In this document: positions 9,862-20,878 of the stretch, in pieces
Numbering within the stretch: the first letter of the stretch is position 1
Layout: the number at the start of each line of letters is the position of its first letter
Origin: Candidatus Buchananbacteria bacterium CG10_big_fil_rev_8_21_14_0_10_42_9
GTDB lineage: Bacteria; Patescibacteriota; Patescibacteriia; Buchananbacterales; 21-14-0-10-42-9
Direction of reading: 5' to 3'
Length of the DNA stretch: 32,640 bases
Assembly: GCA_002773845.1 (NCBI GenBank)
Contig: PEZZ01000002.1
Location: 14,565-47,204, forward strand
Translations under genes and position numbers: made by a program
Notes under the pieces: model-generated
What the model saw: the letters and a program-made list of their open reading frames with translations, nothing else
Database searches by the model: none
Told to the model about the DNA's origin: nothing

Positions 9862-10155
9862 ATGGGAGAAAAAATTAATTTTCCGAATATTTTTAGAGAC
9901 TCCTTGGATGGGCCTAAGGGGCCTGGACGAGCAAAACGCAAGGATAATCTTTCGCCTCCAATAGTAGACAAACAGCCAGTCGATGAATTTCAGCAATCCT
10001 CACCTGAACGTAAACATCAAGAGCAGGTTCAAGACCAAACGGTAGAGAACCGTCTTAAAGGACGTACAAATATCCGGGCAGATCGCGAACCCAAGTTAGA
10101 CAATAACCTCGCTCAAGAGCCCGGTAAGGGCGAAAACATTGATCGCTATGGTTAA
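9862..10155 (+). CDS. Hydrophilic, probably disordered protein
   Basis: 97 residues, very rich in Pro, Asp, Glu, Lys, Gln and Asn, with almost no hydrophobic core; it starts [13 protein letters not shown]. No membrane segment, signal peptide or known motif is visible, and I do not recognise a family. Its end overlaps the following lipoprotein gene by eight bases (ATGGTTAA), so the two are translationally coupled. It might be a partner or substrate of the C39-like protease, but there is no double-glycine leader of the kind cut by transporter-linked C39 peptidases, so this is speculation. Confidence 0.6.
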
Positions 10156-11008
10156 ATTTTTCCCTCTTTTGGTTATTTTTATTTTAGCGGGTTGTACACA
10201 AAAGGCGCCAAATATCTTAATTCATCAAAAAGACAGCCCGGCAAATACTAATTACGACACAAATTTACCCGTTATTGAAAGTGATCAAACTGTAAATGTT
10301 AAAGATGATGCAAGCCGGGAAGTAACTATTCCCGACAGCCCTAACGAAAAACCAGCCGTTGGAGTTGTTAATCCTAATAGTGAAGGTACGACTAAGGCAG
10401 CTCCAGGCAAGCCATTGGCCTCAGTTAGCTACCCTGTGCCATTTGCGCCGCAAGCTCCATACGCGGTTTGGGACGAAGTTCATGAGGAAACTTGTGAGGA
10501 AGCTTCCATGAAAATGGTCCAAGCTTATTTCGCGGGTGAGGACATAAGCGCGCATTTGATGGAGCAAAGCTTGATTAGCCAAGTTAAGTGGCAAGAGCAA
10601 AACGGCTACGGTGTTGATTTAACAGCTGATGAGGTGAAGCATATTTTAGAAAATTATTTTAACTTAAAAGCCGAGGTAACCCCCAATATTGACGCCATAT
10701 CCTTAAAGAATTATTTAACTCAAGGTAAGCTTATAATAGTGCCAGCCGCCGGCAGGGAACTTGGCAATCCGTACTTTTCAGGCGCGGGGCCAATTTATCA
10801 TATGTTAGTCATTCGCGGATATGATCAAACTCACTTTATTACTAATGATCCCGGCACTAAGCGCGGCGAAGGTTACCGCTACAAATACCAAACGTTAATT
10901 AACGCAATTCATGATTGGCCCAGGCATTTAGAAAATGACCAAGGCAAGGTGTCAGCTTCACAAATATTGCAGGGCCAAAAAGTTGTCGTCATTGTGGACA
11001 AGCCTTAG
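10148..11008 (+). CDS. Lipoprotein with C39-type papain-like peptidase domain
   Basis: 286 residues. N-terminal lipoprotein signal: MVK, hydrophobic core FFPLLVIFI, lipobox LAGC with lipidated C16, so the protein should be anchored outside the membrane. A Ser/Asn/Pro-rich linker (about 17-95) leads to a C39_2-like domain (about 96-283). Likely catalytic residues are C116 in ETCEEAS, H218 in YHMLVIRGYD and D234 in TNDPGT, all in the expected order. Substrate unknown; candidates are extracellular peptides, host proteins or murein cross-bridges. The ATG at 10148 is preferred over a TTG three codons earlier because it gives the better signal peptide. It overlaps the preceding gene by eight bases. 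Confidence 0.82.
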   Translation: MVKFFPLLVIFILAGCTQKAPNILIHQKDSPANTNYDTNLPVIESDQTVNVKDDASREVTIPDSPNEKPAVGVVNPNSEGTTKAAPGKPLASVSYPVPFAPQAPYAVWDEVHEETCEEASMKMVQAYFAGEDISAHLMEQSLISQVKWQEQNGYGVDLTADEVKHILENYFNLKAEVTPNIDAISLKNYLTQGKLIIVPAAGRELGNPYFSGAGPIYHMLVIRGYDQTHFITNDPGTKRGEGYRYKYQTLINAIHDWPRHLENDQGKVSASQILQGQKVVVIVDKP

Positions 11009-11278: not shown

Positions 11279-11299
11279 TTTAGTTAAAAGCTGACTTGC
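11259..11299. terminator. Shared hairpin between convergent ferredoxin and pilus operons
   Basis: GCAAG-CAGCTTTT (11259-11271) pairs with AAAAGCTG-A-CTTGC (11286-11299): 13 pairs with a single bulged A. Both convergent stop codons lie at or in the loop. There is no T tract beyond either arm, so it is not a textbook intrinsic terminator, but it could fold at the 3' end of both mRNAs. Confidence 0.5.
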
Positions 11300-11610
11300 G
11301 GCGAACGCACCTCAGACGGTGCAATAATAAACAGGTTAGGAGTCGAAGTGGAAATTGAAGCCGGCGCTTCAGTTTTTTTATTAATTGAGTTGATAATCTC
11401 CTCAAAATCTTTTTGTCTAAGTCTTTCCGACACAACTTCTGGCCGTAGAGCTATGATTTCTTGAGAGTAAGTTAGCACTTGCCAGAAATTTTTATACATA
11501 AAATAACTAAAGTATGTAAAGATTGAAGCCATAATTAAAACCAGTAGATAAATTATCAGCTTACGGCTAATACGAAATTTAAAACTAATTTTTAAATTCA
11601 TTTTTTTCAT
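11284..11610 (-). CDS. Small membrane protein at the end of the pilus operon
   Basis: 108 residues with a basic N-terminus, one membrane helix (about 18-40) and an extracytoplasmic region of about 65 residues ending in a Ser/Thr/Pro-rich tail. It occupies the place of pilP after pilO, but it has no lipobox and no recognisable PilP beta domain, so I do not call it PilP. The start overlaps the pilO stop by four bases (ATGA), supporting the first Met over the one three codons later. It is probably a bitopic accessory of the PilMNO platform (inference from position). Confidence 0.7.
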   Translation of the reverse strand: MKKMNLKISFKFRISRKLIIYLLVLIMASIFTYFSYFMYKNFWQVLTYSQEIIALRPEVVSERLRQKDFEEIINSINKKTEAPASISTSTPNLFIIAPSEVRSPQVSF

Positions 11611-12125
11611 TTCGGTAAGATAAATGATTCAGTCCTAAGCAACGCCTTGACAACATTTGCATCGCTAACGTTAGCAATTGTTAGATTAACTTGTTTAGCG
11701 TTCATATAAACACTTAAAGACTCCAAGGCAACTAGGTAATTTAACATATTGTAGTAATTTCCCTCTAGCACTTGGGTTAATCTAAATTGGTTATTGGCCG
11801 GGGGTTCAGCTTGGAGCGTTTGAATTATTCTGTGCTGGTCGGCGATGCGTTCAAGCTCAGAGCTAAATTCAGCCTCGGCGCCGCTAGCAATAAATACAGA
11901 ATCCAAAATAATTTTTTGTTCGCGAATTTCTTCCAGCGCCCGAACAGTTTCGTTAAGCCTTTGGCCGGCTTGGTATTTGCGTTCTAGCTCAGCCCGTTCA
12001 TCATTAATTAAATTACTTAAATGCATAACTTCTTGGGCTGTTGGAAGTAAAATAAAAAATACCACGCCCACGGTAAAAAGCATAAAGAAAGCAATTGTTA
12101 AATAAAATTTCTGCTTAACGTTCAT
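11607..12125 (-). CDS. pilO: Type IV pilus inner-membrane protein PilO-like
   Basis: 172 residues: short cytoplasmic N-terminus, one membrane helix (about 8-28), a coiled-coil stretch (about 35-75, heptad-like Leu/Glu/Arg) and a C-terminal ferredoxin-like domain (about 90-165). This layout and the place after pilN are those of PilO, which pairs with PilN under the pilus motor. Sequence identity to known PilO is not obvious by eye, so the call relies on architecture and order. It overlaps both neighbours by four bases (ATGA). Confidence 0.78.
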   Translation of the reverse strand: MNVKQKFYLTIAFFMLFTVGVVFFILLPTAQEVMHLSNLINDERAELERKYQAGQRLNETVRALEEIREQKIILDSVFIASGAEAEFSSELERIADQHRIIQTLQAEPPANNQFRLTQVLEGNYYNMLNYLVALESLSVYMNAKQVNLTIANVSDANVVKALLRTESFILPK

Positions 12126-12664
12126 ATTTGTGATTCAGGAAAAATTTTGATAATAATATCCAAATTAAAATCAATGTTATTTTTCTGAAAATTAGCGCTA
12201 AACGGCTCTTCCACTGTCTCAAAATAACCCAAATCGTTTAGTCCGCTGACTAAGTTTTTCAAATCCTCGCGTGTGGGCGCAAACCCGCGAAGAGTAATTT
12301 CTTTGTTCTCGACATCAATTTGTAAAGCCTCTAGCCGGATACTTAATGGCATAGAATTTATAATTTCAATTAAAAATTGACTAACCGGAACGTAATCCTT
12401 TTGGATCGAGGCAATTTTAGTTAATTCTGCGTTGATGGTTTTTATTTCTTGGCTAAATTTATTACTGTGGGTAGACACTAAGGTGTTGTTCTCAATTTCA
12501 CCATAATAGGCATTCTCTAAAATGGCTCTGGCTAAAAGCACTAAAATACTTAAGGCAATAACAAAGATGAGGAAAGCAAAAATAATATTTTTGATGAATA
12601 CAAAATAGTACAATATTTTTAATTCTTGTTTTTTGTTTGGCGATAACAAATTTAATGTAATCAT
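12122..12664 (-). CDS. pilN: Type IV pilus assembly protein PilN-like
   Basis: 180 residues. The cytoplasmic N-terminus has ITLNLLSP (2-9), equivalent to the INLLP peptide by which PilN docks into a groove of PilM. A membrane helix (about 24-46) is followed by a coiled coil (about 60-90) and a ferredoxin-like domain (about 95-178, with LRGFAPTREDLKNLVSGL). It starts one base after the pilM stop and overlaps pilO by four bases. Together PilM, PilN and PilO link the cytoplasmic motor with the assembling pilus. Confidence 0.88.
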   Translation of the reverse strand: MITLNLLSPNKKQELKILYYFVFIKNIIFAFLIFVIALSILVLLARAILENAYYGEIENNTLVSTHSNKFSQEIKTINAELTKIASIQKDYVPVSQFLIEIINSMPLSIRLEALQIDVENKEITLRGFAPTREDLKNLVSGLNDLGYFETVEEPFSANFQKNNIDFNLDIIIKIFPESQI

Positions 12665-12665
12665 A

Positions 12666-13706
12666 TTATGCGTTGCCTCTTAGCGATAGGCCAATGGCCG
12701 TATTAAACGATTGAATTTTATGTTCGGGCAAGGCTTTTGGGACAACAATATTATCTTTCAGGGCGGCAATTTTTACGTTGATATTTAATTTTTCTTTCAA
12801 CACGTTGTCAATGTTTAAAAAATTGGAGCCGCCACCGGTTAATATAACTTGACTGATAGCGTGGGCGTGGTCGTAGTTGTTGGCGTAAAAGTCCTGGGCG
12901 TCTTTAATTTTTGCGGCTAAAAGTTCAATGTTGTCATGTAGCACTTTACGAAGAGCGCCTTTACATTTTTTTTCATCCAGGCCACACACAATTTTTGCCT
13001 CTTCAGCTTTGGTACTATCGATTTTTAAAGTGTCCGCGATAGTTTTGGTAATCGCGTCTCCCGATATCGGTAAGCTAATCGTCAATTGCACCAATGATTC
13101 ATCATAGACAAATAATCCCGTACGACTGGCACCAAAGTCAATGACAATGCTTGGCGTTTGTTCAGCTTGGGATTGAAAAAATATGCCACGGGTGAGAGCG
13201 GCGGCCTCGACCTCTAAGGCAAGCGGGATCAAATTGGCGTCTTCGATTAACTTAGTGTAATCATCGACAATTTTTTTTGGAGCTACGCCAATCAATACTT
13301 CTATTTTTTTTTCTTGTTTGCCGCCATGGACTAACTGCCAGTCGTAGTACACTTCCTCAATGGAGTATGGAATATGGTTAACCATTTCGCTTCGAATAGT
13401 CTCGTCCATATTATCTTTGTCGGTTTGGGGAACGGTAATAACTTTTACGTAAGTTTTTGGTTCAGGCAAAACGCTCACGATCCGATCTGTTTTTATTTTG
13501 CTGCCCTTGGCCCCGCTAACTAAATCTTTAATCGCGGCGACCGCCTTTTTAGCATCTTTAATCTCACCATTAACAATTTCACCGGCCGAAAGTTTTTTAT
13601 CGTTATATGATTTAAGGATCGCTTTTTTGCCGGCACGCTCAATTACCGCTAAACGAATGGCGGTATCTGAGATATCTAAACCTATAACAGCGGGCTTGAT
13701 TGGCAT
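12666..13706 (-). CDS. pilM: Type IV pilus assembly protein PilM, actin-like ATPase
   Basis: 346 residues of the FtsA/actin-like fold. Nucleotide-binding elements: phosphate-1 GLDISDTAIRLAV (9-21), phosphate-2 VIDFGASRTGLFVY (about 198-211) and the adenosine motif LTGGGSNF (about 299-306). The segment VITVPQTDKDNMDETIRSE is the usual PilM region after the first subdomain. It forms a cytoplasmic ring that binds the PilN N-terminus. It starts three bases after the upstream pseudopilin gene ends, inside the same minus-strand operon. Confidence 0.95.
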   Translation of the reverse strand: MPIKPAVIGLDISDTAIRLAVIERAGKKAILKSYNDKKLSAGEIVNGEIKDAKKAVAAIKDLVSGAKGSKIKTDRIVSVLPEPKTYVKVITVPQTDKDNMDETIRSEMVNHIPYSIEEVYYDWQLVHGGKQEKKIEVLIGVAPKKIVDDYTKLIEDANLIPLALEVEAAALTRGIFFQSQAEQTPSIVIDFGASRTGLFVYDESLVQLTISLPISGDAITKTIADTLKIDSTKAEEAKIVCGLDEKKCKGALRKVLHDNIELLAAKIKDAQDFYANNYDHAHAISQVILTGGGSNFLNIDNVLKEKLNINVKIAALKDNIVVPKALPEHKIQSFNTAIGLSLRGNA

Positions 13707-13709
13707 AAC

Positions 13710-15164
13710 TTAATAACTTTCACCAGGCAATACTTCTTCCCAAGAAATAAATTCAAAATCACCGGTCGTCGGGAAAGAAGGCGGGGGGTTATAAATTAAA
13801 TTGTTATCGAATTGTAAGTTGCGGTTAATATAGCCTGAACAATGATAACCACAGTCCCAAGCAAAGCCGTAACGTTCGTAGCTTACTAAAGAACCAAATG
13901 TAGTAATGGTGTCGCGAATATAATCCGAGGAGCTGCACGAGGAAGCGTAGTATTTGCGCCCAATTTTTCCTTTCTGGGCAATTAAAGCGCCATCAATCCT
14001 TAGGTCATCTTCGCTATAGAGCCCAACGCTGATGTCGTTTTGGGCAATTAATCCTATTATATCGGATCCGTCATAATTAGTATAGGTTAAATCATTATTA
14101 ATCCAAATGTTAGCATCGCCGGAGGCGAGCGGATCCTCAGCGGCAACTAATGTTACGCTTTGTGCGTTGATAGTCCCGTCGACCCAAACATTATCTTTTA
14201 CAAAAATTACTCCGTTAGATGGGATTGAAGCGGTCGTCCAATTACCCACATAGCTTGTAATCAAACCCGTGCCCTCCCAACCGAATTGACTTGAGGAATA
14301 ACATGAGGTAGTGGTTTTGACTTTGCGATATTGAATTTGGCCATTACCTAAAAATTGGACGTGCCAGCCTTGTTGATTTGATTTGCTAATAACTAAGCCC
14401 GCCACGTCTTCAAGCACGGCTAAATCTAAAGTAATCCCGTTAAAATCTACCGGGGCGACTGGAAATTCGCGGCCACCAGCAAAAACATCCGCCCGTACGG
14501 GCACGCTAGCTGGCGGCAGAGGATCAGTCGGGTCAACATGAGTGTGCACACCAAATTCATTCCCGCCAGAATGGTCAGGGTCGTTATAGTCGGCTTTAGC
14601 GGATGTAACTACATTGTTAGCTACACCGTCAAATCTAACTCCTCCGTTTGAATGAACCGGCCCGTTAATCACAGTCCCTTCGCCAAAGCGCACATCGTTG
14701 TTCACGGCCACCGCGAATTTGGCCCACGATTGAGCACCATACCTAACGGCGATGCTTCTGGCACTGCCCGGAACTTCTGGAATGTGGCCAGTTGATTTTA
14801 TGGTGACAATAGTTGAACCTGAAGTCGGGGGAGTAATTTCTAAGATAAACTCACCGACAATGTCATTATTTGGATCTGAGTAAGTATGTACGTAAGGACC
14901 GCATGTTGGGTCGCAGGCGGTAGGGGTGTTGCCATCATAATAATCGGTCGGATCATGGGCTAGGTGCCAACGGTAATAATTAGCACCAGCCTCCGCGATG
15001 TGTAATGCGGCCGCCTGTGCTTTTTTTAGCCTTTCCAGGCGTTGCTGGTAAGTTACCAGTGATAAAATACCGGCGGCAATTACCACAAACACGGTAACGA
15101 AAATCATAGTCATGACCAAAACCGCTCCTTGCTGTGACTTTGATTTTTTAATTATAAATCTCAT
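13710..15164 (-). CDS. PilX/GspK-like minor pseudopilin, large
   Basis: 484 residues. Prepilin-like N-terminus QQGAVLVMTMI (11-21), with processing expected after G13, and a hydrophobic helix to about residue 37, followed by LHIAEAGANYYRW, a sequence style I associate with CPR pilin-like proteins. There is no Glu at +5 (Met18), which fits the PilX/GspK class at the pilus tip. The large outer part has repeated short beta segments (VNNDVRFGEGTVINGPVHSNGGV, NVWVDGTINAQSV) like DUF4900-type beta-solenoid pilin proteins, and Cys pairs near the C-terminus. It lies one base from the 202-residue pseudopilin gene. Confidence 0.82.
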   Translation of the reverse strand: MRFIIKKSKSQQGAVLVMTMIFVTVFVVIAAGILSLVTYQQRLERLKKAQAAALHIAEAGANYYRWHLAHDPTDYYDGNTPTACDPTCGPYVHTYSDPNNDIVGEFILEITPPTSGSTIVTIKSTGHIPEVPGSARSIAVRYGAQSWAKFAVAVNNDVRFGEGTVINGPVHSNGGVRFDGVANNVVTSAKADYNDPDHSGGNEFGVHTHVDPTDPLPPASVPVRADVFAGGREFPVAPVDFNGITLDLAVLEDVAGLVISKSNQQGWHVQFLGNGQIQYRKVKTTTSCYSSSQFGWEGTGLITSYVGNWTTASIPSNGVIFVKDNVWVDGTINAQSVTLVAAEDPLASGDANIWINNDLTYTNYDGSDIIGLIAQNDISVGLYSEDDLRIDGALIAQKGKIGRKYYASSCSSSDYIRDTITTFGSLVSYERYGFAWDCGYHCSGYINRNLQFDNNLIYNPPPSFPTTGDFEFISWEEVLPGESY

Positions 15165-15773
15165 CTATAAATTGTCCTTTAAATTTCTAATCGTTGTGCT
15201 AGATTCAAGTTCCGCCGGATTTGGGGCTTTGGTTGGATCAATATTAATTTTAAGATAAGTTTTAACAAATTTAATATCGTCAACTTCAACCGGTTGGGTT
15301 AGGGGATTTGACACTTGATCCGCTGGCCAGTCTTCGTTGTAGTAGTAAAATATTGGATCTGCGCCATTGCGTACATATTCTGACAAAATTGAAATCACTT
15401 CGTTGCCAGATGGATAAGTTCCCGGCACGCCGACTGGCTCAATAACGCCCTTTTTTAAATCCGTACCGTCTAAAAAATATCTTATGCGCTCGGTTTCTTG
15501 GTCGATATCCAAATCGCTATAAAAAATCAATTCTTGGGCGTCGGCCGCGCTAATCGGAAACGAGCCATTTTCTGAAGTGCTGGCCTCCCTGATTTCTTTA
15601 ATCATAAATTCCACTCCGCGCCGCGCGTTATTTAACGCTTCGTTTTGTTCATTCGCAAAGCTATTAACGCGCAGGCCTTGGATAATAACACTGGTTACTA
15701 CCACTGAAGCGGTCGTAAAAATTGAAATTACAACAACTGCCTCTAGCAATGTAACTCCTTTATGATTCAACAT
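15165..15773 (-). CDS. Minor pseudopilin, PilW/GspJ-like
   Basis: 202 residues. Class III prepilin signal KGVTLLEAVVVI: cleavage after G6, mature protein starting V7, with Glu11 at +5. The hydrophobic helix runs to about residue 33, followed by RGVEFMIKEIREAS, the usual PilW/GspJ-like segment, and a globular domain with several beta strands and a Tyr-rich patch (IFYYYNEDW). It overlaps the 745-residue gene by 14 bases, so the three pseudopilins are made together and probably assemble as one priming tip complex. Confidence 0.86.
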   Translation of the reverse strand: MLNHKGVTLLEAVVVISIFTTASVVVTSVIIQGLRVNSFANEQNEALNNARRGVEFMIKEIREASTSENGSFPISAADAQELIFYSDLDIDQETERIRYFLDGTDLKKGVIEPVGVPGTYPSGNEVISILSEYVRNGADPIFYYYNEDWPADQVSNPLTQPVEVDDIKFVKTYLKINIDPTKAPNPAELESSTTIRNLKDNL

Positions 15774-17997
15774 TTAAATAAACTTTTAAGGTTGAGTTTG
15801 GGTTTAGGCTGACCGGGCTAACTGGGTCACTTGAAATTAAGTTGAAGCCAAAACCTGGCTGCACCTCAATAAAGTACGGATCCCATTCCATATCATTTAA
15901 GATCAATGATCCCGACCCGTCAGTTGATACATTTTGATCATATTTGTAAATCACGGGATTATTGCCAATTTGTTTAGTGGTGTGAATTCTTAATGGCACG
16001 TTGGCAACTGGGACTATACTACTGGGGTCGCCGTTAACGATTACCGCTTTGATATCCCAATCTCCACCGCTATCATCTTCCCAAGTAACTGCTAACAAAT
16101 CATTCGCTGTGGTGGCCGCGTCTGGCCTACGTTGACCCCCCCCGCTTACAACTACCGGAAAATCAAAAGGCAAAAGTTTATTGCCAGCGCTATCAATCAT
16201 TTGTCCATAGATGTCATAATTGCCATTACGAAGATCTTGCCAAACTACGTATATTTGCTCGTTGCTATCAATTGCTATGACCGGGCGTTCTTGCGGGGAA
16301 GCGTCAGTATTTGAATTAACCAACACGTCATTGGCCCAAATTTTTGCGCCGCTGTCATCAAATTTTTGCAAATAAATATCATCATTACCGCTACGGCCAT
16401 CTTGCCACGTTACATAAAAATACAGGTTTGAAGTTCGGCTCATGGCGATTCGTGGGTTAATTTGCCCAAACGATGAATTTTCGCTATTCAATTTTATATC
16501 AGGCGACCAAAGCAAATCGCCGTCACTATTTACTCGTTGGCTGTAAATATCAAAATCTCCGTTGCGATCATCTTGCCAAACGATAAACAAATTGTCATCG
16601 GCATTAATAGTTAGGTCGGGTAATTCTTGTAAGCCAGTGCCTGACCCAGATCCTGAGTTAGTATTAACTTTAACCTCCGGGACCCAAACTTGGGTGGTAT
16701 CATTATTGAGTTTTTGTAAATATATGTCTGATAAACTATCACGGTCGTCCTCCCACGTAATAAACAATGCATCGCCAGTGGCATTAGCCACAATTCTTGG
16801 TTGGGTTTGGTCAGCGTTTGACGCATCTGTTTCTAACTTATTGTTACCACCAAGCAACTCATTGCCGTTAGTATCGTATTTTTCCATATGCACATCCAAA
16901 TTACCATTCCGGTTATCACTCCATGCATAATAACTATTGCAACTACTGTCGGCCGCGATGTCAACATAGTCAGAGTTAGAGGCCGTTGAAATATCGATAT
17001 CGTTTGGGTCACCCCATTGATGCGATTGCGTGGCGACATCATATTTTTGTCCGTGAATTTTACCTTGGCCGGTTAAAAAGTCTTGCCAGGCAAACACAAT
17101 TTCATTCGACCCAAAGCATACAGCCATTGAGCCGTGCAGTTGATCGTCTAAGCCGACAGAGTTAACTATCCATTCTGTTGGCACGACTTGGCTAATGGTG
17201 GAAATATCGAGGGTGGCCAATAAATCAATTCCAAAGCTTACTTCAGTTAAGCTTGCCAAAACCACCGACGCGTGTGGGTTGGTCGGGACAGGATTACCCA
17301 ACACGCAGTCGCTACCCGAACTATTTATGGCGCAAGTATAATCACTGCTGTAACCATCTTTTGTTACGGTAATTTCATAACTATCCTGTGACTCTGGCGT
17401 GCAGGCAAGCAAGACCACGCCAGTTGGACTGGAAGTCCGAGTTGTGTCAATAGTTGGGTTGGTAGAATTATTAACTACATGCACGGTGGCACCTTCTACT
17501 GGTAGGCCATTGGCATCAAAAACAATTATTCGTAAAGCCCCGCCGCCCTCACATGTTTCAAGGCCCCGGGGAGCAATATTGGTTACACTATAGATAGTTT
17601 GTGGGCCAAGCGGAGTATTCCAAGTCACACTAATTTTGGCTTGTTTGTAGTCGTTAGGAGCGGTATCCGCCGGCGTTACATCGTCGTAAGTGTCGTCAAT
17701 ATAAATAACTTGGGTATTAACGGCAAAGGTAATGCCATTTAAAACTAAATTTTCATTTTGTTCAATCGGCCCAGGCGGAACGCCGCCGTTAGTGCCAACT
17801 TCTTCATAGGATAAATTACGAATGATTTCAATTTTTTCATTGGCTAAGGCGATCGCGCTATTTCTTCCCTTGCTTAAAGCTAGCACTCTTAAAGCAAATT
17901 GAAACATGCCAATAATGCCTAAGCTCAGCATCGCCAATATACTCATTGAAATTACCACTTCAACTAGAGAAAAGCCAAAAATGTTTTTTTTGCGCAT
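15760..17997 (-). CDS. Giant pseudopilin fused to a seven-repeat beta-propeller; candidate tip adhesin
   Basis: 745 residues. Prepilin signal FGFSLVEVVIS: cleavage after G8, Glu13 at +5, hydrophobic helix to about 31. Residues about 153-215 are a carboxypeptidase-regulatory-like beta sandwich (LRIIVFDANGLPVEGATV). Residues about 285-655 carry seven repeats of the pattern W-x-D-x-R-x-G-x-x-D-I-Y-x-Q-x-x-D, with Trp at 304, 359, 415, 474, 531, 586 and 639, spaced 53-59 residues: the count and length expected of a seven-bladed propeller. A last beta sandwich (about 660-745) follows. Best read as a PilV/tip-type minor pilin whose propeller faces outwards and binds a surface, glycan or host. Ligand unknown. 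The gene shares one base with the pilC stop (TAATG). Confidence 0.85.
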   Translation of the reverse strand: MRKKNIFGFSLVEVVISMSILAMLSLGIIGMFQFALRVLALSKGRNSAIALANEKIEIIRNLSYEEVGTNGGVPPGPIEQNENLVLNGITFAVNTQVIYIDDTYDDVTPADTAPNDYKQAKISVTWNTPLGPQTIYSVTNIAPRGLETCEGGGALRIIVFDANGLPVEGATVHVVNNSTNPTIDTTRTSSPTGVVLLACTPESQDSYEITVTKDGYSSDYTCAINSSGSDCVLGNPVPTNPHASVVLASLTEVSFGIDLLATLDISTISQVVPTEWIVNSVGLDDQLHGSMAVCFGSNEIVFAWQDFLTGQGKIHGQKYDVATQSHQWGDPNDIDISTASNSDYVDIAADSSCNSYYAWSDNRNGNLDVHMEKYDTNGNELLGGNNKLETDASNADQTQPRIVANATGDALFITWEDDRDSLSDIYLQKLNNDTTQVWVPEVKVNTNSGSGSGTGLQELPDLTINADDNLFIVWQDDRNGDFDIYSQRVNSDGDLLWSPDIKLNSENSSFGQINPRIAMSRTSNLYFYVTWQDGRSGNDDIYLQKFDDSGAKIWANDVLVNSNTDASPQERPVIAIDSNEQIYVVWQDLRNGNYDIYGQMIDSAGNKLLPFDFPVVVSGGGQRRPDAATTANDLLAVTWEDDSGGDWDIKAVIVNGDPSSIVPVANVPLRIHTTKQIGNNPVIYKYDQNVSTDGSGSLILNDMEWDPYFIEVQPGFGFNLISSDPVSPVSLNPNSTLKVYLNVES

Positions 17998-19087: not shown

Positions 19088-20827
19088 TTATTCTTTAGTC
19101 ACTCTTAGCACTTCTTCAATCGTAGTAATGCCATTTTTAGCTTTAATAAAACCATCTTCCAGCATAGTCATCATTTTTTGCTCTCGAGCCAACTCAAAAA
19201 GCTTTTCCGGCGTGACTTTTTGGGTGATTGCCTCTTCAACTTTTCCAGTTATCTCTAAAATTTCAAAGATTCCTAAGCGACCCTTATACCCCGTATCATT
19301 GCATTTTTTGCACCCTTTGCCTCGGTAAAATCGTAAATTTTGAGTTTTTTGCTTGCCGGAATCAACTACGCCTTCTTGCGCAAGCATTTTGACTAAGTTG
19401 CTGAAAGCCACCTGCTTTTCTAAAGTGTCAATTTCTTTTTGAGTTAAAGTGTAGCTTTCAATGCAATCCCGGCAAATTTTCCTGACTAGTCTTTGGGCCA
19501 CAACTATATTAGTCGTACTAGCAAGTAAAAAGTTTGGAATATTCATATCCGCCAAGCGCGGCATTGTGGTAACCGCGTCGTTGGTGTGGAGAGTAGACAA
19601 CACTAAGTGCCCGGTCATAGCGGCATGTACAGCAATTTCAGCCGTTTCTTGATCGCGGATCTCTCCAACCATAATAATGTCTGGGTCTTGGCGCAAAAAT
19701 GATCTTAAGCCGGCGGCAAAAGTAAAATTAATTTTATTATTAACTTGGCTTTGGTTGATGTGAGGCATGCGATATTCTATTGGATCTTCAATCGTGCAAA
19801 TATTGACTTCTGGCTTATTCAGCATGTTTAAAATCGTGTATAAAGTCGTGGTTTTGCCAGAGCCGGTTGGCCCGGTGACTAAAAGCATGCCGTTAGGTTT
19901 GGTGATGTTTCGCTTTACAATATCCAACGCCTTTTTTTGAAAACCCAATTCGTCCAAAGTTAAAAGCTGATTTTTTTCATTTAGCAAACGCAAGACCACC
20001 TTTTCCCCGTCGTAAGTAGGCGTTATTGAAACGCGGAATGACACTTTATATTCGTTGGTAGAAATTTTAAATCTGCCATCTTGCGGCACCCGATGCTCAT
20101 CTAGTTTTAAATTTGATAAAATTTTTATTCTAGCCACAACGCCTGGGTGGACTGATTTTGGTAGCGTCATAACTGTGTGCAAAATTCCGTCAATGCGGTA
20201 TCTAACTGACACTTCCTTTTCGCTAACCTCAATATGTATATCAGAAGCACCCTCAAAAATAGCGTACTCAAGCAAAGTATCAACAATTCTGATGACCGGT
20301 AAATCTTGAGCTAGCTCTTCTAGCTCTTTGCCGGCTACATCTTCTCTCTGGTCATCTTTTTTGTCGCCAGAAGTGATTTCAGCAAACTCTGCCTCAAGTC
20401 CCTTATGGTAAAGCTTTAAGGCTTCGCGCATGTCTTCAGGGGTGGTGATGGAGATGGCAATTTCTAGATTTGTTTTTTTTCTTAAAAACTCAAAGATTTC
20501 TAAATCCTTGGGGTCTAAGGTGGCAACACTAAGAGTTTTGTTGTCTTTATCAAAGGTAATGACTTGATGAGTTTGGGCGATCGGTTCGGGGATGACAGTT
20601 AGAATATCTTTTCGAATGTTTTTGTCTTTTAAGCTAATAAACGGCAATTTATAATAATCAGCTACCGCGTTATATAGATTAGCGCTGGTCAGAATTTTTT
20701 TATCTAACAGGTATTCCTCAACCTCTTTATTGTCTTTTTTAGCGGCTTTTTTGTGGGCGGCAAATTCTTCGCTGCTTAAAACATTTTGCGAGGTCAGAAT
20801 TTTTTGTAAATCTTTTGTGTTGAACAT
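19088..20827 (-). CDS. pilB: Type IV pilus extension ATPase PilB
   Basis: 579 residues. N-terminal MshEN-like domain (about 1-145), then the secretion ATPase: Walker A GPTGSGKTT at 319-327, Walker B IIMVGEIRD at 384-392 including the Asp box, His box LSTLHTND near 411-418. The zinc-binding tetracysteine is complete (C452/C455 and C506/C509), which marks PilB rather than the retraction ATPase PilT. Start choice: two upstream in-frame starts lie in or against the -10 box, so the Met at 20827, with a leader of about 15 bases, is the first that can be in the mRNA. First gene of the operon. Confidence 0.96.
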   Translation of the reverse strand: MFNTKDLQKILTSQNVLSSEEFAAHKKAAKKDNKEVEEYLLDKKILTSANLYNAVADYYKLPFISLKDKNIRKDILTVIPEPIAQTHQVITFDKDNKTLSVATLDPKDLEIFEFLRKKTNLEIAISITTPEDMREALKLYHKGLEAEFAEITSGDKKDDQREDVAGKELEELAQDLPVIRIVDTLLEYAIFEGASDIHIEVSEKEVSVRYRIDGILHTVMTLPKSVHPGVVARIKILSNLKLDEHRVPQDGRFKISTNEYKVSFRVSITPTYDGEKVVLRLLNEKNQLLTLDELGFQKKALDIVKRNITKPNGMLLVTGPTGSGKTTTLYTILNMLNKPEVNICTIEDPIEYRMPHINQSQVNNKINFTFAAGLRSFLRQDPDIIMVGEIRDQETAEIAVHAAMTGHLVLSTLHTNDAVTTMPRLADMNIPNFLLASTTNIVVAQRLVRKICRDCIESYTLTQKEIDTLEKQVAFSNLVKMLAQEGVVDSGKQKTQNLRFYRGKGCKKCNDTGYKGRLGIFEILEITGKVEEAITQKVTPEKLFELAREQKMMTMLEDGFIKAKNGITTIEEVLRVTKE

Positions 20828-20848
20828 TTTTGATGTTAGTTCTGCCAT

Positions 20849-20878
20849 ATTATACCACAAAATTATTGCATTAGACAA
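20849..20878 (-). promoter_or_regulatory. Promoter of the type IV pilus operon
   Basis: On the minus strand TTGTCT (20878-20873), 18-base spacer, TATAAT (20854-20849) with extended -10 TGG. No other strong promoter is evident in the following 9.5 kb of tightly packed genes. Confidence 0.75.

What the first reader, a model, noticed from the sequence alone, without database searches (positions are those of the whole stretch)
15760..17997. Pseudopilin fused to a seven-repeat propeller: candidate pilus-tip adhesin of a CPR bacterium
A class III prepilin signal with Glu at +5 is joined in one 745-residue protein to two beta-sandwich domains and seven W-x-D-x-R-x-G-x-x-D-I-Y repeats with Trp at 304, 359, 415, 474, 531, 586 and 639. 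Most minor pilins are under 250 residues. Placement between the platform gene and two other pseudopilins implies assembly at the pilus tip. In an epibiont, this would be the part that recognises a host cell. Seen: signal, repeats, spacing, gene order. Inferred: tip position and host binding.
Basis: partly seen in the sequence, partly recalled or inferred. Interest (0 to 1): 0.75.

Follow-up and report, generated by a model that had tools for sequence, protein, structure and literature searches.

The report
Minor pilin with inserted propeller head
An ultrasmall (CPR) bacterium has a pilus subunit with a seven-bladed propeller spliced into a conserved stalk; many relatives keep the same stalk but carry other heads or none, so it looks like an exchangeable grip at the tip of the pilus, although no binding has been shown.

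Summary
ORF 15760-17997(-) is a 745-aa prepilin (cleavage after G8, Glu+5) with a 50-residue helix, a pilin sheet, and two transthyretin-like CpD domains flanking seven repeats. AlphaFold2 gives seven blades (pLDDT about 75-96), and PDB hits are propeller enzymes and a seven-bladed lectin. About 105 of 381 sampled genomes of the class carry the same pilin-CpD scaffold, in a conserved operon B-C-V-W-X-M-N-O(-P). The middle differs: bare (440-494 aa), propeller (about 29 genomes), LamG, DUF2341 combinations, or a 150-aa beta-sandwich module, at about three fixed sites. V length varies 443-1530 aa (CV 0.32); W, X, B and C barely vary. Heads follow scaffold clades, so rapid swapping is not supported. 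Best reading: the I/V-type subunit of an I-J-K tip complex displaying an inserted ligand-binding head. Tip position and binding are inferred. Host recognition is plausible by analogy with TM7x PilX2, another CPR propeller pilin needed for normal host binding, but untested here. Modular pilins, including CPR ones, are already known, so this is a new variant of a known kind.

The parts
17974..17997 (-). Prepilin leader MRKKNIFG (residues 1-8)
   Evidence: Sequence; Pfam N_methyl 4-28, 24.0 bits
17818..17973 (-). Long pilin helix (residues 9-60) with Glu at +5
   Evidence: AF2 helix 11-60; alignment A2
17563..17817 (-). Pilin globular part (61-145) with class-conserved motifs IRNL.Y..VGT.GG and DD.(F/Y)D...D..P.DYK
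   Evidence: AF2 strands 81-141; invariant columns in A2
17218..17562 (-). CpD1, transthyretin-like domain (146-260)
   Evidence: Pfam CarboxypepD_reg 156-219, 30.7 bits vs cut-off 32.3; family HMM
17188..17217 (-). Strand ending ATLDIST (261-270), probably the first strand of CpD2, which is split here by the head
   Evidence: Junction comparison with headless relatives
16018..17187 (-). Seven-bladed beta-propeller head (271-660)
   Evidence: Seven repeats, TIGR04275, AF2, PDB fold search
15763..16017 (-). CpD2, second transthyretin-like domain (661-745)
   Evidence: Family HMM; AF2 strands 668-743
19088..20878 (-). PilB-type extension ATPase
   Evidence: Pfam T2SSE and MshEN, TIGR02538
17997..19085 (-). 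PilC-type platform protein; its stop overlaps the pilin start
   Evidence: Pfam T2SSF x2
15165..15773 (-). W: second minor pilin (GspJ/ComGF-like), Glu at +5; overlaps the pilin gene by 14 bases
   Evidence: Weak N_methyl and gspJ matches; found near V in 75 of 86 loci
13710..15164 (-). X: third minor pilin (GspK/PilX-like N-terminus), no Glu at +5, large C-terminal part
   Evidence: NF037980 E=6e-4, under cut-off; alignment A3; AF2 pilin part only
12666..13706 (-). PilM
   Evidence: Pfam PilM_2 E=2e-36; TIGR01175 over cut-off
12122..12664 (-). PilN-like
   Evidence: Pfam PilN E=0.004, under cut-off
11607..12125 (-). PilO/GspM-like
   Evidence: Position and weak GspM match; conserved in 43 loci
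11284..11610 (-). Small operon-end protein ('P'), conserved in 26 loci, function not assigned

Best explanation
This is the I/V-type minor pilin of a type IV pilus in a Parcubacteria-type CPR bacterium. Its N-terminal helix packs into the pilus and, with W and X, forms the tip cap made first during assembly. A CpD stalk lifts a seven-bladed propeller, held at both ends inside the second CpD domain, above the tip, where it binds a ligand on another cell or surface. Shown here: prepilin signal, domain anatomy, predicted seven-bladed fold, conserved operon, and variable heads at fixed sites on a conserved scaffold. Inferred: assembly into a filament, tip position, ligand binding, and a host cell as the target.
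For: Prepilin motif over cut-off. Seven blades in AF2 with good confidence; fold neighbours include the seven-bladed lectin CV39L, TM 0.70 by target length, and propeller glycosidases. Operon B-C-V-W-X-M-N-O(-P) across the class: W near V in 75 and X in 74 of 86 loci. V carries most length variation: CV 0.32 against W 0.13, X 0.08, C 0.05, B 0.07 in 72 loci, as expected for the exposed functional part. Same junction with propeller, DUF2341/LamG, 150-aa module or nothing. Residues conserved in 17 propellers lie mostly at repeat-consensus positions, fitting a binding scaffold. Literature: I-J-K minor pilins sit at the tip (PMC9934059); modular pilin heads bind host proteins and glycans (PMC8179133, PMC9934059); TM7x PilX2, a CPR pilin with a seven-bladed propeller, is needed for normal host binding (PMC12206443).
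Against: No binding, surface or host data exist for this organism. W and X match the J and K families only weakly. No major pilin and no PilT lie in this operon, so which filament carries it is unknown. The genome has several other pilus loci. Fifteen relatives have the scaffold with no extra head, so a head is not required. The same repeats occur in secreted proteins without a prepilin signal.
Confidence: 0.6

Rival explanations
1. The pilus is a competence (DNA-capture) pilus and the head helps to catch or thread DNA.
For: V and W show weak matches to ComGE minor pilins; a comEC gene exists.
Against: comEC appears split: the Competence-domain frame stops, a GIY-YIG-like ORF follows, and the metallo-beta-lactamase part lies in another frame. 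The propeller is rich in Asp, not basic. Heads of unrelated folds on one scaffold fit varied ligands better than DNA.
Confidence: 0.12
2. The propeller is an enzyme (glycosidase or lyase) carried on a pilus to trim surface glycans.
For: Top fold hits include GH145, sialidases and a rhamnose-glucuronate lyase; partial sub-cut-off Pfam GH43 match.
Against: Residues conserved across 17 propellers sit mostly at repeat-symmetric positions; no separate conserved acid/base set is seen. The GH43 match covers 69 residues, and GH43 is a five-bladed fold (general knowledge).
Confidence: 0.08
3. The head is mainly a structural or priming part of pilus assembly, PilY1-like in role, rather than an adhesin.
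For: PilY1, also a propeller protein, primes assembly with minor pilins (title and abstract of PMC7541494). V genes are kept with the machinery across the class.
Against: Headless versions of the scaffold exist in the same operon, so the propeller is not needed for the operon's core function in those lineages.
Confidence: 0.1
4. Adhesion is to surfaces, polymers or sister cells rather than to a host.
For: Similar repeats occur in proteins of many other bacteria and archaea; heads include general carbohydrate-binding LamG domains.
Against: The small genome and CPR affiliation make a partner cell likely; TM7x precedent.
Confidence: 0.25

Closest known systems
Modular type IV pilins (Streptococcus sanguinis PilB and PilC; PMC8179133, PMC9934059)
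   Same: Prepilin helix plus pilin module carrying a bulky non-pilin binding module, predicted to sit at the tip. The published survey already lists CPR examples and PF13620 (CarboxypepD_reg) pilins.
   Different: There the module is grafted at the C-terminus through a short linker. Here the head sits inside a chain of CpD domains, anchored at both ends, and is a propeller.
Nanosynbacter lyticus TM7x PilX2 (PMC12206443)
   Same: CPR minor pilin with a predicted seven-bladed propeller; deletion roughly halves host binding.
   Different: RCC1-type repeats in an X-position pilin without a predicted PilD signal; here a TIGR04275-like repeat in a V-position pilin with a clear prepilin signal and CpD stalk.
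PilY1/PilC1 tip adhesins
   Same: A propeller displayed with minor pilins at the tip (function by analogy).
   Different: PilY1 is a separate non-pilin protein with PF05567; this protein has its own prepilin helix and no PF05567 match.
GspI-GspJ-GspK / H-I-J-K minor pilin set
   Same: Three consecutive minor pilins; the third is large and lacks Glu at +5.
   Different: Sequence matches to the named families are weak; the extra domain is on the I-like subunit.
TIGR04275 beta-propeller repeat proteins
   Same: Repeat motif W.D.R.G..DIY, E=6e-17.
   Different: Under the family's cut-off (61 against 85 bits).

Membership tests
Type IV pilins | Class III signal: short leader ending in Gly, Glu at +5, hydrophobic helix | tested here: met
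Type IV pilins | Processed by PilD and incorporated in a filament | not testable with these tools
   A PilD-like gene is encoded elsewhere in the genome
Modular pilins (Raynaud et al. 2021) | Pilin module joined to a domain not specific to pilus biology | tested here: met
   Propeller and CpD domains
Modular pilins (Raynaud et al. 2021) | Extra module has a direct function such as adhesion | not testable with these tools
   No assay possible
H-I-J-K tip minor pilins, I/V subunit | Encoded just before J-like and K-like minor pilins | tested here: met
   V-W-X order in most of 86 loci; the J and K identity of W and X itself rests on weak matches
H-I-J-K tip minor pilins, I/V subunit | Sequence match to the GspI, ComGE or PilV model above cut-off | tested here: not met
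   ComGE 22.7 vs 49 bits, PilV 19 vs 52.2 bits
H-I-J-K tip minor pilins, I/V subunit | Forms a ternary complex with J and K | not testable with these tools
   Complex prediction not available
Seven-bladed beta-propeller | Seven blades in a closed ring | tested here: met
   Predicted only: seven repeats, AF2 blades, Foldseek propeller hits; closure inferred from the N-terminal repeat end
TIGR04275 repeat proteins | Score above curated cut-off (85 bits) | tested here: not met
   61.1 bits
CarboxypepD_reg (PF13620) | Score above curated cut-off (32.3 bits) | tested here: not met
   Window CpD1 30.7 bits; a CpD domain of a headless relative scores 35.8
PilY1/PilC1 | PF05567 C-terminal propeller | tested here: not met
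   No match at E<=0.1

The most novel reading that the evidence does not exclude
The class-wide V pilin is a standard mount with fixed insertion sites on which CPR lineages have installed different heads, and the head type determines which partner cells a lineage can seize. Partner range could then be read from the head sequence.
Probability: 0.2. Interest if true: 0.85.

Novelty: new variant of a known kind. Interest (0 to 1): 0.58.

Why it matters
How ultrasmall CPR bacteria recognise partner cells is largely unknown. A tip pilin with a conserved mount and a variable head, in a conserved operon across a CPR class, gives a specific protein and domain to purify and test, and a sequence trait to compare with known partners. 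The cultured Minisyncoccus archaeiphilus with its archaeal host (PMC12281837) and the genetically tractable TM7x offer test systems, though it was not checked whether Minisyncoccus encodes this scaffold.

Tried and rejected
Rapid head exchange: rejected; on the scaffold tree the eight head states need only 12 changes (shuffled mean 53.9), so heads follow clades. Solved relatives by sequence: none. AF2 of the X pilin: low confidence outside the pilin part (mean pLDDT 47), so no fold search was made. Local major pilin in the operon: a motif search found further pilin-like ORFs in only 6 of 86 loci. RNA families in the window: none. Propeller form outside the class: 1 of 65 scaffold-bearing genomes has it next to the scaffold (G419); a second has only weak matches in other proteins. 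Same-family comparison: no other genome of the family is held.

Full report
What is there. The ORF at 15760-17997 on the minus strand encodes 745 residues. It starts MRKKNIFG|FSLVEVV: a prepilin leader with Gly at -1 and Glu at +5, and N_methyl scores above its Pfam cut-off. The repeats are not chance: mean unit-to-unit score 64.7 against 22.8 +/- 1.1 in shuffles, and TIGR04275 matches at E=6e-17, though under its cut-off. No solved protein is similar by sequence.

Fold. AlphaFold2 on 15 sequences gave mean pLDDT 78 and pTM 0.61: a helix 11-60, a pilin sheet 81-141, a sandwich domain 153-224 with strands to 270, seven blades 275-654 (mostly pLDDT 75-96) and a last sandwich 668-743. Against the PDB the best hits are propellers: CylK, GH145 glycosidases, sialidases, and the seven-bladed lectin CV39L (TM 0.70 by target length). 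The segment PTEWIVNS before blade 1 looks like the end of a repeat, and the last repeat lacks that end, as in a ring closed by its N-terminal strand (inference). Domain placement relative to the pilin is not certain, since pTM is only 0.61.

Neighbourhood. Upstream are PilB and PilC; downstream W (Glu at +5), X (no Glu at +5 in four relatives), PilM, PilN-like, PilO-like and a small protein. V overlaps both neighbours, suggesting one transcript. In 86 loci of relatives W was found near V in 75, X in 74, PilC in 60, PilB and PilM in 53; missing genes were often beyond contig or fetch ends, not checked one by one. In a few loci M-N-O precede V. The window's operon has no major pilin, and a motif search found further pilin-like ORFs in only 6 of 86 loci. 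The genome holds 19 prepilin-like hits and several other pilus loci, among them one with PilT, PilD, a major pilin and a V pilin carrying a LamG domain.

The family. A class-wide search (381 genomes) gave 167 with a match; by my count about 105 have the scaffold (E<1e-10, less four with secreted repeat proteins only), and about 29 have the propeller, one of them cut by a contig end. Domain mapping of 86 proteins shows pilin, CpD1, CpD2 and often CpD3, with inserts at few places. Between CpD1 and CpD2: nothing (8-17 residues in most), a propeller of 345-405, DUF2341 with LamG or BNR-like parts, or a 150-aa module. Between pilin and CpD1: one or two LamG copies in four genomes. Within CpD3: one or two copies of the same 150-aa module, confirmed by profile search from a copy at the other site. 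Six propellers hold a further 360-660 residue insert after the first blades. At the junction, headless relatives read LSTVNIQTFDQASQPLPNIDFTLRG and the window reads LATLDIST-[propeller]-VPVANVPLRI, so the head appears to sit in the first loop of CpD2 with both ends anchored.

Evolution. A tree of pilin plus CpD1 (85 rows, quick method) needs 12 changes for eight head states against 53.9 in shuffles. Heads are old clade traits; the propeller lineages are a grade; nested inserts arose more than once. Within propeller proteins the head (38% mean identity) is only slightly more divergent than the pilin (43%) or CpD1 (42%). I therefore do not claim fast diversification. V still carries the most length variation of the operon: CV 0.32 against 0.05-0.13 for B, C, W and X; PilM shows 0.21. 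Phylum-wide, the scaffold is in 76 of 380 genomes, while the propeller form was found beside the scaffold in one of 65 scaffold genomes outside the class, possibly with a frame break.

How it may work. Minor pilins H, I, J, K cap the tip and start assembly (PMC9934059). Order and N-terminal features place V, W, X as I, J, K, although profile scores are below cut-off. V would then expose its head at the tip. Conserved propeller residues are mostly at repeat positions (39 of 49, the rest being mainly Trp, Tyr and Asn of the same repeat), which argues for a binding surface rather than a catalytic site. In TM7x the propeller pilin PilX2 is needed for normal host binding (PMC12206443). The step from these facts to host recognition in this organism is inference.

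Known and new. Modular pilins, CPR examples and CarboxypepD_reg pilins are in the literature (PMC8179133), and a CPR propeller pilin is too. I found no paper in the held library describing the class-wide V scaffold, its insertion sites or this propeller form; that library lacks most subscription papers. Hence: new variant of a known kind.

Noticed in passing
L200 (G000:C7:24186 onward): The genome's comEC appears split: Competence-domain frame, then a GIY-YIG-like ORF, then the metallo-beta-lactamase part in another frame.
   Followed up: partly
L165 (G000:C29:34000-47966): A second, fuller pilus locus with PilM/N/O/P-like genes, PilB, PilT, PilC, major pilin, PilD and a 601-aa V pilin whose C-terminus matches LamG.
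   Followed up: partly
L168, L169, L170, L167, L172: Further PilB/PilC or PilM-type pilus loci; the 1.09 Mb genome holds 19 prepilin-like hits, many for its size.
   Followed up: no
window 13710-15164: The X pilin has a strongly conserved large C-terminal region with no Pfam match; AF2 was not confident.
   Followed up: partly
L085, L094, L128, L129, L140, L077: Propeller pilins carry a 360-660 residue insert after the first blades; L077 has cysteine-rich repeats in it.
   Followed up: partly
L183, L184, L185, L186: Secreted proteins of the same class carry the W.D.R.G..DIY-type repeats without a prepilin signal.
   Followed up: partly
window 10139-11008: ORF with a Peptidase_C39-like domain (E=4e-11) on the opposite strand, next to the end of the pilus operon.
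   Followed up: no
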